Positions 5,147 through 13,763 of a stretch of DNA of 64,000 nt are shown piece after piece. Where the stretch lies: the NCBI GenBank assembly GCA_022827195.1, contig JAJDTL010000049.1:1-64000 (forward strand), written 5' to 3'. The stretch's first letter is position 1. Every line of letters begins with the position of its first letter. This DNA is from Caldilineaceae bacterium (lineage in GTDB: Bacteria > Chloroflexota > Anaerolineae > Caldilineales > Caldilineaceae). Position numbers and translations under genes: made by a program. The notes under the pieces are model-generated. The model saw only the letters and a list, made by a program, of their open reading frames with translations. It was not told the DNA's origin and made no database searches.

Positions 5147-6670
5147 CTAGGGGACAACTGAGAGCAGTTGTACGGAAGCGTTGCTGACCCAGTCGATCAC
5201 CGGGCTGGGATAGACCCCGATCCAGATCGTGGCGACCGCGCAGACGAGCAGGCTGGTCTGTAGCGCCATCGGCACTTCGAGCGGCCGGTCCTCCTCCTCT
5301 TCTTCTGTGAAGAACATCGCCCGAATGACCCTCAGATAGTAGAAGGCGGCGATACCGGCGTTGATCATGCCGATCGCGGCCAGCCAGAAGTATTGGCGCT
5401 GTATGGCGGCGCCGAAGACGAAAGCCTTGCCGAGGAAGCCGCCCGTGGCGGGGATGCCGGTCAGGCTGAGCAGAAAGACGGTAAACATCACCGCCAGCCA
5501 GGGTGCGCGCTTGATCAGGCCGCGGTATGCGTTGATGTGTGTGCTGTCGACCGTCTCTTCCAGCGCCATCACGACGAGGAAGGCGCCGACGTTTGTAAAC
5601 AGGTAGGCGAAGAGATAGAGCAGCACGCCGTTGAGCCCGTCCATCGCGCTGGTTGAGGCAGATGTCACCGCCACAAGCCCCATCAGAATGTAACCGGCCT
5701 GGGCGACCGAGCTGTAGGCGAGCATGCGTTTGACGCTGCTCTGGCGCAGGGCGGCCAGGTTGCCCATGGTCATGGTGATGATGCTGAAGGCGGCCAGGAC
5801 GGGCACCCAGTTTACCTCGAAGGAGGCCATGCCGACTACAAAGAAGCGGGCGAGGACAGCGAAGGCCGCGGCCTTAGAGGCAGTGGAGAGGTAGGTGGCG
5901 ACCGGGGTAGGGGAGCCGTCGTAGGTGTCGGGCGCCCACTGATAGAAGGGGGCCAGGCTTGCCTTGAATCCCAGCCCGGCGAGCACCAGGAGCATCGCCG
6001 GCAGGGCGGCGAAAGCCAGTCCGCTCACTTCCGTCGAATCGCCCATGATCTCGCCGAAGGCGGCGGCGATGTCGTGAATGTAGAGGGAGCCGGTTGCGCC
6101 GTAGAGCAGGCTGATGCCGTAGAGCATCACGGCCGAGGCAATCGACCCGTAGAGGAAATACTTGAGGCCGGCCTCGTTGCTGCGCCGGTTGTCGCGCAGG
6201 AAACCGGCCAGCATGTAGCTGGTAATCGACAGGAACTCGATGGCGAGGTAGACGAGGACCAGGTTATTGGCGCTGGCTGCAATGCTCATCGCCAGGCTCA
6301 CCATGAGGAAGAAGGTCCAGAATTCGCCCTGGTTGCCGGAGCGGCGGTTCATGTAGCGGCCGCCGGCGATGGCGGTCAGGATCATTCCGGCAAAGACGGT
6401 GACCTTGATGAAGCTGCCGAAGTTGTCGATGGTCATCATCGAGAATGCGACCTTCGGCACCGGTTCCGGGGTGGCCTCGGAGATTTCGGAGATGTTCAGC
6501 TGCAGCACGACGGCAACCAGGGCCGCGCCCAAGAAGAGGGCGGCCAGCGCCATGTAGCTGAGGCCGGACTTCTTGCCGACGCCGGGGTCGTATGCCAAGT
6601 CCAGACAGAAGATGAACAGGCCGCCGATCAGAAGTATGATTTCGGGTGCGATTAGACCTAGGTCGCCCAC
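5147..6670 (-). CDS. nuoN: NADH-quinone oxidoreductase subunit N, copy 1
   Basis: 507 residues with about 14 predicted membrane helices. It is an antiporter-like pump subunit of complex I. Family marks: IEFLSITSYMLAGF with the conserved TM5 Glu, GLGFKASLAPFYQWAPDTY with the TM7 Lys, and RQSSVKRMLAYSSVAQAGY with the TM8 Lys. The start is GTG at 6670 with GGAG upstream. It is the last gene of the minus-strand membrane-arm operon, 21 bp after nuoM. The pump residues are intact, so the copy looks functional. A second NuoN is encoded at 28671-30107. Confidence 0.95.
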   Translation of the reverse strand: MGDLGLIAPEIILLIGGLFIFCLDLAYDPGVGKKSGLSYMALAALFLGAALVAVVLQLNISEISEATPEPVPKVAFSMMTIDNFGSFIKVTVFAGMILTAIAGGRYMNRRSGNQGEFWTFFLMVSLAMSIAASANNLVLVYLAIEFLSITSYMLAGFLRDNRRSNEAGLKYFLYGSIASAVMLYGISLLYGATGSLYIHDIAAAFGEIMGDSTEVSGLAFAALPAMLLVLAGLGFKASLAPFYQWAPDTYDGSPTPVATYLSTASKAAAFAVLARFFVVGMASFEVNWVPVLAAFSIITMTMGNLAALRQSSVKRMLAYSSVAQAGYILMGLVAVTSASTSAMDGLNGVLLYLFAYLFTNVGAFLVVMALEETVDSTHINAYRGLIKRAPWLAVMFTVFLLSLTGIPATGGFLGKAFVFGAAIQRQYFWLAAIGMINAGIAAFYYLRVIRAMFFTEEEEEDRPLEVPMALQTSLLVCAVATIWIGVYPSPVIDWVSNASVQLLSVVP

Positions 6671-6691
6671 CAGTTGCTCTCCATTCGGGAA

Positions 6692-8290
6692 TCAGACGAG
6701 GTTCTGCACAAACGCCAGCAGTTCGCGCGCTGATTGGTTAAAATATTCCACCAAGGGCGTCGGGTAGATGCCGATGATGAGCATCGCCGCGATCAGCGGC
6801 CACATCGTCATCTTCTCGAATCCGACCATGTCGGTGGGTCCATCGGCATGCTCGCCGTCAACAGTCGTCCAGTGCGGCAGCTTGTTTTCGTCGTATTCGC
6901 CCAGGAAGACGTTCTGTATGATGCGGTAGAGGATATATACGGCGGTGATGACGATGCCGATGGTGCCGAAGGCGGCCCAGTAGGGCATGAGGGCGAAGGC
7001 GCCGCGGAAGGTGAAGAACTCCGCCCAGAAGCCGGCCAGGCCCGGCAGGCCGAGGCTGGCGAAAGCGGCCGTCAGCATGAGGCCGTAGAAGTGGGGCGTC
7101 TTGGTTGCGAGCCCTCCGAAGCGGGCCAGGTCGCGTGAGTGGGCGCGCTCGTAGATAATGCCCACGAGGAAGAAGAGCGCGCCGGTGATGATGCCGTGGT
7201 TGAACATCTGCAGCGCGGCGCCGTTGAGCGCCATGGCCGCGCTGTCCTGGATCGCCTCGGTGCTGAGTTCGAAGCGGCTGACGGCGCTCGCCAGGGCGTC
7301 CGGGGTCATGATGGAAGCCGCGGCGCCGATCCCCAGCATGACGTAGCCCATGTGGCTGACCGAGCTATAGGCGATGAGCCGCTTTAGGTCGGTCTGGGCG
7401 ACACATACGAAGGCGCCGTAGACGATTGCGATCGCGCCGAGCGCGACGAGCCAGGTGGCCCAGTAGACCGAAGCCTCGGGGAAGCTGGGCAGCATGATAC
7501 GCAACATGCCGTAGGCCCCGAGCTTCAGCAGGACGCCGGCCAGGATCACCGAGCCGGCCGTTGGCGCTTCGGTGTGCGCGTCGGGCAGCCAGGTATGGAA
7601 GGGGAAGCTGGGGACCTTGAAGGCGAAGCCCAGGAAGAAGCCCCAAAAGGCCAGGCTTGCCAGCGTCAGATTGCCGGCGAAAGGCTGGGCCGCGGCGGCC
7701 TGGACGATGTCGAAAGTGCCGGTGGCGAAGTAGACCGCGAGAATTGCAAGCAACATGGCCACGGAGCCGACCAGGGTATAGATGAAGAACTTGGTTGCGG
7801 CGTAGCCTCGATTCTCGCCGCCCCAGATGCCGATGAGGAAGTACATCGGCACCAGGCTGATCTCCCAGAAGACGTAGAAGAGCACATAGTCCAGCGCCAC
7901 AAAGACGCCGAGCATGCTGAACTCGAGCAGGTGCATCAGGAAGAAGTACTCTTTGACGCGTGTGTTGATGACGCCGGCGCTGTAGTAGAGGCTGAGTGTG
8001 CTCAGCAGCGTGGTCAGGAATATCAGCGGAACGCTCAACCCGTCGACGCCGAGGTGATAGCCGGCGTTGAGCTGCGGTATCCAGCTTGCTATCTGCTCGA
8101 ACTGGATGCCGCCCGTGCTGTTGTCGTATTCGAAGAGCAGGTAGATGCTGAGGCCGAGAGGGAGCAGGCTGGCCCAAATGGAGCCGTACTTGATCTGTCG
8201 GTCGCTGCGGCCGAGCAGGATGACGAGCAGCGCCGCCACGAGCGGCCAGAAGAGCAGGACTGTCAGGACAATTGAATCAGGTGAATCCAT
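6692..8290 (-). CDS. nuoM: NADH-quinone oxidoreductase subunit M, copy 1
   Basis: 532 residues, a 14-helix antiporter-like proton pump subunit. Visible landmarks: FWEISLVPMYFLIGIWGGEN with the TM5 Glu, FKVPSFPFHTWLPDAHTEAP with the TM7 Lys, DLKRLIAYSSVSHMGYV with the TM8 Lys, and the C-terminal Glu-containing GLPGLAGFWAEFFTF. ATG 8290 has GGAG eight bases upstream. It sits between nuoL (54 bp upstream) and nuoN (21 bp downstream). Compared with copy 2 it carries an extra loop between helices around residues 320-345. All proton-channel residues that can be identified are kept. Confidence 0.95.
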   Translation of the reverse strand: MDSPDSIVLTVLLFWPLVAALLVILLGRSDRQIKYGSIWASLLPLGLSIYLLFEYDNSTGGIQFEQIASWIPQLNAGYHLGVDGLSVPLIFLTTLLSTLSLYYSAGVINTRVKEYFFLMHLLEFSMLGVFVALDYVLFYVFWEISLVPMYFLIGIWGGENRGYAATKFFIYTLVGSVAMLLAILAVYFATGTFDIVQAAAAQPFAGNLTLASLAFWGFFLGFAFKVPSFPFHTWLPDAHTEAPTAGSVILAGVLLKLGAYGMLRIMLPSFPEASVYWATWLVALGAIAIVYGAFVCVAQTDLKRLIAYSSVSHMGYVMLGIGAAASIMTPDALASAVSRFELSTEAIQDSAAMALNGAALQMFNHGIITGALFFLVGIIYERAHSRDLARFGGLATKTPHFYGLMLTAAFASLGLPGLAGFWAEFFTFRGAFALMPYWAAFGTIGIVITAVYILYRIIQNVFLGEYDENKLPHWTTVDGEHADGPTDMVGFEKMTMWPLIAAMLIIGIYPTPLVEYFNQSARELLAFVQNLV

Positions 8291-13327: not shown

Positions 13328-13406
13328 AATCGCGACTCCGCAAAGCAAAGAATCGTAATGAGCAGACCGATGCCCGGGCGCAATCTCCAGCGATTCCCGG
13401 GAGGGG

Positions 13407-13763
13407 CTATTGCCACTCCAGCGCGCCCTTTCGCCAATCGTAGAGCAGCCCGATCACCAGGAGCAGGACGAAGAAGATCGTGGCCAGAACGGCGAACATC
13501 TCCAGCTGCTGATAGGCGACCGCGATCGGGAAGAGAAAGAGTGCCTCCACGTCGAACACGACAAAGACGAGGCCGATCAGATAGTATTGGGCGCGAAACT
13601 GGACCCATGTTTCGCCGATCGTCTCCACGCCGCTTTCGTAGATGTCGTTCTTGACTTCGTCGGGCCGCCTGGGACCGATGAAATATCCCAAAACGACGGC
13701 GGTCAGAGGCAGCACGACGGCCAGGCCGGACATGACCAAAATGAAGAAATACTGGCTCAGCAT
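13407..13763 (-). CDS. nuoA: NADH-quinone oxidoreductase subunit A, copy 1
   Basis: 118 residues from [16 protein letters not shown] 13763 is chosen because the upstream extension has no membrane or family character. Three membrane helices. The conserved loop [15 protein letters not shown] and [13 protein letters not shown] are both present, and the end is WRKGALEWQ. The GETWVQF loop reads closer to cyanobacterial/plastid NdhC (GAWIQF) than copy 2 does. It is the first gene of the minus-strand locus, 80 bp before nuoH, and faces nuoA copy 2 across a 400 bp control region. Confidence 0.93.

What the first reader, a model, noticed from the sequence alone, without database searches (positions are those of the whole stretch)
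5147..13763. A nuo locus that holds only the seven membrane subunits of complex I
The minus-strand locus encodes NuoA, H, J, K, L, M and N, exactly the hydrophobic set, with no B, C, D, I, E, F or G. It lies back-to-back with a complete operon. The conserved Glu and Lys residues of L, M and N and the NuoK Glu residues are intact, so it is not decaying. NuoH and NuoL differ in length and loops from copy 2. Possible readings: an alternative membrane arm that swaps onto the B-CD-I module next door, a pump driven by a different electron donor module coded elsewhere, or a locus whose soluble genes moved. Complex I forms without EFG are known, but a set also lacking B, C, D and I is unusual.
Basis: partly seen in the sequence, partly recalled or inferred. 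Interest (0 to 1): 0.7.

Follow-up and report, generated by a model that had tools for sequence, protein, structure and literature searches.

The report
Complex I membrane genes, split operon
The locus is the membrane half of a second respiratory complex I whose other core genes sit elsewhere in the genome, an arrangement already described in related bacteria; what looks new is a small extra gene inside it and an altered proton-relay site in one subunit.

Summary
In detail: nuoA-H-J-K-L-M-N are intact, back to back with a complete nuo operon. The puzzle does not. In the order, 41 of 46 sampled genomes show both NuoH1 and NuoCD1, in 41 of 41 not in one cluster: different contigs (38) or 1.16-1.43 Mb apart on single-contig chromosomes (3). 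NuoH and NuoD trees place both parts beside contiguous A-B-CD-H-I-J-K-L-M-N clusters of other Chloroflexota, far from copy 2. This is an NADH-module-less ('11-subunit') complex I encoded at two loci. Separated nuoBCDI with fused nuoCD is already in print for Chloroflexi. Reduced ferredoxin is the likely donor (inferred).

Two things look new. (1) An eighth gene (117 aa, TPR-like plus hydrophobic segments) between nuoK and nuoL, in 39 of 39 Caldilineaceae-type loci. (2) NuoH lacks Glu36, Arg209 and Glu241 (E. coli numbering) and carries Glu208, in 40 of 40 Caldilineaceae-type rows. NdhA of ferredoxin-driven NDH-1 shares Glu208 and the loss of Glu241; the joint loss of Glu36 and Arg209 was seen nowhere else here. 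Neither feature has a tested function.

The parts
13407..13763 (-). nuoA1 (PF00507), start of the membrane-arm operon
   Evidence: D71/E73 kept
12086..13327 (-). nuoH1, 413 aa; T51, E232, L233 and Q265 at E. coli positions 36, 208, 209 and 241
   Evidence: PF00146; residues
11486..12016 (-). nuoJ1 (PF00499)
   Evidence: Y73 kept
11068..11382 (-). nuoK1 (PF00420)
   Evidence: E36 and E76 kept
10674..11027 (-). uncharacterised 117-aa gene: TPR-like helices plus two hydrophobic segments, between nuoK1 and nuoL1
   Evidence: tblastn homologues in 42 of 80 loci; codon-position differences 1342/1097/2451 over 4268 codons of ungapped hits of 100 aa or more; 60 database homologues, none with a precomputed Pfam domain; TPR_19 matches at E up to 0.01 in 38 of 56 aligned members
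8345..10603 (-). nuoL1, 752 aa, with a His-rich insert (roughly 9270-9420)
   Evidence: PF00361/PF00662; insert
6692..8290 (-). nuoM1
   Evidence: PF00361 and TIGR01972
5147..6670 (-). nuoN1
   Evidence: PF00361 and TIGR01770
14161..30107 (+). copy 2: complete complex I operon A, B, CD, EF, (Uma2 gene), G, H, I, J, K, L, M, N; the neighbour, not part of copy 1

Best explanation
The locus encodes the membrane arm (NuoA, H, J, K, L, M, N) of a second, NADH-module-less complex I. The matching quinone module (NuoB, fused NuoCD, NuoI) is encoded at a separate locus of the same genome; the two came from one contiguous cluster of Chloroflexota. Shown from sequence: both loci exist, their subunits share an evolutionary history, and the metal-cluster motifs and the compared charged residues of the antiporter-like subunits are kept. 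Inferred: the two products assemble into one enzyme; electrons enter at NuoI (probably from reduced ferredoxin, since no dedicated NuoF was found), pass to cluster N2 in NuoB, reduce (mena)quinone and drive proton pumping through NuoL, M and N. Also inferred: the 117-aa TPR-like, probably membrane-anchored protein is an accessory subunit or assembly factor.
For: Own genome: PF01058 (NuoB) and PF00346 (NuoD) each hit two genes, one in copy 2 and one at the end of contig C3, the latter NuoD in two pieces of one frame; the C3 cluster is B (267 aa), CD (592 aa), I (285 aa). Of 43 genomes reached from the NuoH1 hits, 42 have a match to NuoCD1 of 53% identity or more that covers NuoD; the 43rd (G037) shows only a 50% NuoC piece and a 38% hit. 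In the order, NuoCD1 is in 41 of 46 and NuoH1 in 43 of 46 genomes (own genome included); the 41 with both have them on different contigs (38) or 1.16, 1.30 and 1.43 Mb apart on single-contig chromosomes (3). B, CD and I stand together in 20 of 20 fetched relatives. In the D tree, D1 is one clade (97) next to the contiguous clusters L084/L086 (99), far from D2; the H tree gives the same neighbours (97), with one exception, L088. Contig link: the last 137 bases of C3 are identical to C29 at an IS4/5-family element, and C29 carries the genes that follow nuoI in the nearest relative. The only other PF10589 (NuoF) hit lies with formate dehydrogenase genes. N2 cysteines kept; both NuoI 4Fe-4S motifs present. 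Three PF01855 (2-oxoacid:ferredoxin oxidoreductase-type) matches are in the genome.
Against: The genome is an assembly of 54 contigs with 5.32% estimated contamination, and the C3-C29 link is an overlap inside a mobile element. Lying on different contigs does not by itself show distance; distance is shown only for the three single-contig genomes. The 46 genomes overlap with the 43. Copy 2 with its own EFG is usually present too: in 27 of the 29 genomes given to (of the 43), NuoEF lies on the contig of a copy-2-type CD, so sharing of EFG cannot be excluded. No expression, protein or activity data were available. The ferredoxin donor is an inference; relatives without EFG in the cluster (Dehalococcoidia L081, and L084, L088) keep the NuoH glutamates that this one lacks.
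Confidence: 0.85

Rival explanations
1. Copy 1 is complete but borrows the NuoEFG module of copy 2, so it is an NADH dehydrogenase that shares its N-module.
For: Copy 2 EFG is encoded next door, and NuoEF beside a copy-2-type CD is found in 27 of the 29 genomes tested. For Chloroflexus, sharing of nuoG between two clusters has been suggested in print (PMC3150298, passages).
Against: NuoI1 is only 28% identical to NuoI2 and carries a long C-terminal extension (285 vs 157 aa). The contiguous relatives of copy 1 in L084, L086 and Dehalococcoidia L081 show no EFG match in the DNA held around the cluster. None of this excludes binding of a shared module.
Confidence: 0.1
2. The membrane arm swaps onto the B-CD-I module of copy 2 next door.
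For: The two loci are back to back with divergent nuoA genes, in many relatives too.
Against: A dedicated B1-CD1-I1 set exists, and both halves share a history distinct from copy 2.
Confidence: 0.03
3. The C3 cluster is a contaminant contig, and this species really lacks B1-CD1-I1.
For: 5.32% estimated contamination and a separate contig.
Against: NuoCD1 97%, B1 97% and I1 96% identical to the nearest relative, like NuoH1 at 96%; C3 overlaps C29 by 137 identical bases and gene order agrees with that relative; three of three single-contig relatives hold both parts.
Confidence: 0.02

Closest known systems
Split 2M complex I of cultured Chloroflexi (Anaerolinea thermophila type; described in PMC7117926, which cites Chadwick et al. 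2018)
   Same: nuoBCDI separated from the membrane-gene operon, fused nuoCD (passage in PMC7117926); A-H-J adjacency is seen here in Anaerolineae loci.
   Different: The window locus has one nuoM, not two; it carries the extra 117-aa gene; its NuoH has the changed residues. Chadwick et al. itself was not held, so what it says about Caldilineae is not known to me.
[quoted passage not shown]
   Same: NuoA, B, C, D, H-N without NuoE, F, G; electron donor not settled, ferredoxin proposed (PMC11238625, passages).
   Different: There a single nuoABCDHIJKLMN operon; here two loci, fused CD and a second complete complex I in the same genome.
Cyanobacterial and chloroplast NDH-1 (ferredoxin:plastoquinone oxidoreductase)
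   Same: No N-module (PMC12170339, passage); NdhA has Glu at the E. coli 208 position and lacks Glu at 241 (Ala in chain 6hum_A, that this chain is cyanobacterial is recalled; Ser262 in spinach).
   Different: NdhA of 6hum keeps Glu36 and Arg209. On the H tree, which holds no NdhA, the Glu208 change arises inside Chloroflexota, so convergence is likely. NDH-1 accessory subunits were not searched for.
Second complex I cluster of Chloroflexus (printed as nuoABCDHJKLMMN in C. aggregans)
   Same: Second, incomplete cluster beside a 14-gene one in Chloroflexota (PMC3150298 and PMC8004040, passages).
   Different: Its B, C and D lie with the membrane genes, and it has two nuoM.

Membership tests
11-subunit (EFG-less) complex I | All seven membrane core subunits | tested here: met
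11-subunit (EFG-less) complex I | Own NuoB, C, D, I | tested here: met
   second copies at the end of contig C3
11-subunit (EFG-less) complex I | N2 cysteine ligands in NuoB and two 4Fe-4S motifs in NuoI | tested here: met
   NuoB1 C60/C61/C126/C156; NuoI1 motifs
11-subunit (EFG-less) complex I | No dedicated NuoE, F, G | tested here: met
   For NuoF: PF10589 hits are copy 2 and one formate dehydrogenase locus only. NuoE and NuoG were not searched separately across the genome.
11-subunit (EFG-less) complex I | Takes electrons from a donor other than NADH | not testable with these tools
   needs biochemistry
11-subunit (EFG-less) complex I | Products of the two loci form one complex | not testable with these tools
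   needs proteomics; shared history shown
Canonical complex I E-channel | Glu at E. coli NuoH 241 (Thermus Glu248) | tested here: not met
   Gln in 40 of 40 Caldilineaceae-type rows; Glu in 33 of 34 outgroup and 14 of 14 copy-2 rows; Thermus position counted on the alignment
2M complex I | Two NuoM in the cluster | tested here: not met
   one NuoM between NuoL and NuoN
Mrp antiporter or membrane-bound hydrogenase membrane arm | Lacks the full NuoA/H/J set of complex I (feature recalled) | tested here: not met
   NuoH, K, L, M, N over NCBIfam cut-offs, NuoJ by PF00499 (below the NCBIfam cut-offs), NuoA by PF00507
Cyanobacterial NDH-1 | Ferredoxin-binding accessory subunits (NdhS and others; recalled) | not tested
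   not searched for

The most novel reading that the evidence does not exclude
Caldilineaceae carry a ferredoxin-fed complex I with a rebuilt proton entry in NuoH: the E-channel glutamate 241 is lost and a glutamate is placed at 208 (as in the photosynthetic, ferredoxin-driven NDH-1, by convergence), followed by further loss of Glu36 and Arg209. It also carries an uncharacterised membrane-anchored TPR accessory subunit. Together these would be a natural test of which E-channel carboxylates are needed for coupling.
Probability: 0.4. Interest if true: 0.65.

Novelty: new variant of a known kind. Interest (0 to 1): 0.4.

Why it matters
The split itself is known. The NuoH changes matter because how the E-channel carboxylates couple quinone chemistry to proton pumping is openly disputed (PMC13324432 and PMC10212512, passages), and here a whole family of bacteria has natural replacements at positions that are otherwise nearly invariant in the sequences compared. 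If the enzyme pumps, it sets limits on models that need Glu241 (Thermus Glu248). The parallel with ferredoxin-driven NDH-1 suggests, but does not show, a link between electron donor and channel layout. The extra gene is a concrete candidate subunit to look for in proteomics.

Tried and rejected
Membrane arm without any partner: rejected, since a second B-CD-I set exists.

The second NuoF-like hit (C9) as a dedicated N-module: rejected. It is a NuoE/F-like fusion beside an iron-sulphur protein, a molybdopterin enzyme split by an in-frame TGA, and FdhD, so most likely a formate dehydrogenase.

Shared C-terminal tag on NuoB1 and NuoI1: rejected. The two tails look alike by eye, but 203 of 2000 composition-preserving shuffles score as high, and a search of the genome with the last 34 residues of NuoI1 found only NuoI1 itself and a second stretch of the same frame at E = 5.58. 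Both tails are present in the Caldilineaceae-type relatives printed; their role is unknown.

C3-C29 junction: I first took the 410-aa ORF beside it for the transposase; Pfam shows an SH3 domain there, and the transposase matches are in two neighbouring ORFs.

Its best profile match to solved structures outside TPR proteins (PufY, E 0.034) is at chance level.

Limits. The split count uses adjacency of A, H and J among ORFs of at least 85 aa found with the window's own subunits; two of the 63 'split' loci (L087, L094) are outside Chloroflexota and were not checked for a separate B-CD-I; 13 loci were contiguous and 4 undetermined. The NuoH comparison used 34 outgroup rows, all from that same scan, and 14 copy-2 rows. 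In the replacement scan outgroup rows were A 31, B 13, CD 3, H 34, I 16, J 29, K 29, L 13, M 11, N 10 and copy-2 rows for I, J, K, L, M, N only 1 to 5; outgroup NuoL, M and N rows of 12 listed loci, mostly with two NuoM, were left out. Trees are quick mode with SH-aLRT only, and the H tree includes the four columns whose changes were counted. In the H tree L088 groups with the contiguous L084/L086 (95), which the D tree does not repeat.
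Full report
What is there. The minus strand of 5147-13763 encodes NuoN, M, L, K, J, H and A. Copy 2 on the plus strand, 14161-30107, is a complete complex I with fused CD and fused EF and a Uma2-family gene between EF and G. Copies 1 and 2 are 28-50% identical subunit by subunit (with B1, CD1 and I1 from contig C3). One compared position, E. coli NuoM Glu108, is Val in copy 1 and His in copy 2.

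The missing genes. PF01058 and PF00346 each find two genes in the whole genome: copy 2, and one at the end of contig C3. C3 carries nuoB, fused nuoCD and nuoI in a row, and the contig ends about 300 bases later. The last 137 bases of C3 are identical to a stretch of C29 (450 kb) inside an IS4/5-family transposase region, and C29 carries, next to it, genes that follow nuoI in the closest relative. These include an amine-oxidase-type FAD protein and a NUBPL-family iron-transfer NTPase. C3 is therefore most likely part of this genome.

The split is conserved. A scan of genome contigs with NuoH1 gave 80 loci (the best 80 of 522 confirmed places), the nearest of them Caldilineaceae. A, H and J are adjacent, with no B, CD or I between them, in 63 of 80; 13 are contiguous and 4 undetermined. 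Of 43 genomes tested, 42 have a NuoCD1 match of 53% identity or more covering NuoD, and one (G037) does not. In an order-wide sample, NuoCD1 was found in 41 of 46 genomes and NuoH1 in 43 of 46, own genome included. In the 41 with both, the two lie on different contigs (38) or far apart on single-contig chromosomes (3: 1.16, 1.30 and, around the origin if circular, 1.43 Mb). Different contigs of a fragmentary assembly do not prove distance; the three single-contig genomes do. B, CD and I stand together in 20 of 20 relatives fetched. In one relative (L088, contig length 116,871) B-CD-I lies about 23 kb from the membrane genes on what is, by its length, the same contig.

Shared history. In a 47-row tree of NuoD, copy 1 is one clade (SH-aLRT 97) whose nearest neighbours are the contiguous A-B-CD-H-I-J-K-L-M-N clusters L084/L086 (99), then Dehalococcoidia; copy 2 is elsewhere. 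The 47-row NuoH tree gives the same neighbours (97), except that L088 joins L084/L086 (95). The simplest history is a contiguous EFG-less cluster in Chloroflexota from which B-CD-I was moved. Only these two subunits were put on trees.

No N-module of its own was found. The only other PF10589 hit in the genome lies with a molybdopterin enzyme interrupted by an in-frame TGA and with FdhD, so it most likely belongs to a formate dehydrogenase. Three PF01855 matches (2-oxoacid:ferredoxin oxidoreductase type) make reduced ferredoxin plausible. Donor identity is inference; for 11-subunit enzymes in general it is reported as unsettled, with ferredoxin proposed (PMC11238625, passages). Copy 2, with its own NuoEF, is present in 27 of the 29 genomes given, so a shared N-module is not excluded.

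What is known. A passage of PMC7117926 states that cultured Chloroflexi with the two-NuoM complex have nuoBCDI separated from the operon and a fused nuoCD, citing Chadwick et al. 2018, which was not held. The gene split is therefore not new. The window's locus is a one-NuoM form of it.

An eighth gene. ORF 10674-11027 (117 aa, GTG start) between nuoK and nuoL has tblastn homologues in 42 of 80 loci: 39 of 39 Caldilineaceae-type loci (L017-L055, one of them partial) plus L059, L060 and L078. L056, L058 and L064 have a short gap there and no ORF, and in L057 a 458-base gap holds no recognised homologue. Codon-position differences of 1342, 1097 and 2451 over 4268 codons (ungapped hits of 100 aa or more) show third-position excess, as for a protein under selection. 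The protein database gives 60 homologues, none with a precomputed Pfam domain; where a source names one it is mostly 'hypothetical protein', and one UniRef name begins 'Tetratric'. Members match TPR_19 weakly (38 of 56 at E up to 0.01; the window's own sequence does not), and the C-terminal half has two hydrophobic segments, the second weaker. It is probably an accessory subunit or assembly factor (inference). One literature search for such a gene listed two papers, neither about it by title or abstract start; their texts were not searched for it.

NuoH. A scan of ten subunits for positions near-invariant in outgroups, copy 2 and E. coli but replaced in Caldilineaceae-type copy 1 gave four in NuoH, and elsewhere mostly conservative changes (five in NuoCD, two in NuoL, one in NuoM, two in NuoN, of which NuoN His224 to Tyr in 25 of 31 is not conservative). 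NuoH positions (E. coli numbering), of 40 rows: 36 Glu to Thr (37) or Leu (3); 145 Gly to Ala (36) or Ser (4); 209 Arg to Leu (28) or Gln (12); 241 Glu to Gln (40). Position 208 is Glu in 40 of 40, and Gly or Asn in 33 of 34 outgroup rows. Seven of seven sister loci, and L071, have Glu36, Glu208, Arg209, Phe241. All 120 listed database homologues of NuoH1 carry the altered set; these are the nearest by score, so this is no independent survey. On the H tree the Glu208 change needs one step, 241 two, 209 two and 36 three. Position 241 corresponds to Thermus Glu248, counted on the printed alignment, a member of the 'glutamate quartet' (PMC5938582, passage). In E. coli, Glu216, His226, Glu241 and His208 of NuoH are listed together along the E-channel with its waters (PMC13324432, passage). 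NdhA of chain 6hum_A has Glu at 208 and Ala at 241, and spinach NdhA has Ser at the latter (PMC12170339, passage). So loss of Glu241 occurs in a working ferredoxin-driven complex, and the first step here resembles it. The additional loss of Glu36 together with Arg209 was seen in no other sequence compared here; Glu36 alone is Thr in L085 and L089. Against a simple donor link: L081, L084 and L088, without EFG in the cluster, keep Glu241.

Verdict. The finding as posed is explained and its main part is known. What deserves attention is the NuoH site and the extra gene; neither has a tested function.

Noticed in passing
   Followed up: partly
window 12086-13327: NuoH1 lacks Glu36, Arg209 and Glu241 (E. 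coli numbering) and has Glu at 208.
   Followed up: partly
window 19167-19865: A Uma2-family gene (Pfam: putative restriction endonuclease) sits inside the copy-2 operon between nuoEF and nuoG; a relative of it is seen there in some related loci and not in others.
   Followed up: no
L148 7813-14243 (contig C9): Formate dehydrogenase-type locus whose catalytic gene is split by an in-frame TGA at 10803, a likely selenocysteine codon.
   Followed up: partly
L014 7894-8697 and 10681-11538: NuoB1 and NuoI1 have long charged C-terminal tails, present in Caldilineaceae-type relatives and absent from copy 2; role unknown.
   Followed up: partly
window about 9270-9420: His-rich insert in NuoL1, also present in relatives with variable sequence.
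   Followed up: no
downstream of nuoI1: L149 5809-6642 (C29), and relatives: A gene of one cluster lies near B-CD-I in 15 of 20 relatives fetched; its member on C29 is a NUBPL-family iron-transfer NTPase (only that member was tested). NUBPL is a complex I assembly factor in mitochondria (recalled).
   Followed up: partly
G000 contig C35 73852-78336: Two further PF00361 proteins (827 and 565 aa frames), possibly an Mrp-type antiporter.
   Followed up: no
L034 and L036: One Litorilinea-labelled assembly holds two NuoH1 loci.
   Followed up: no
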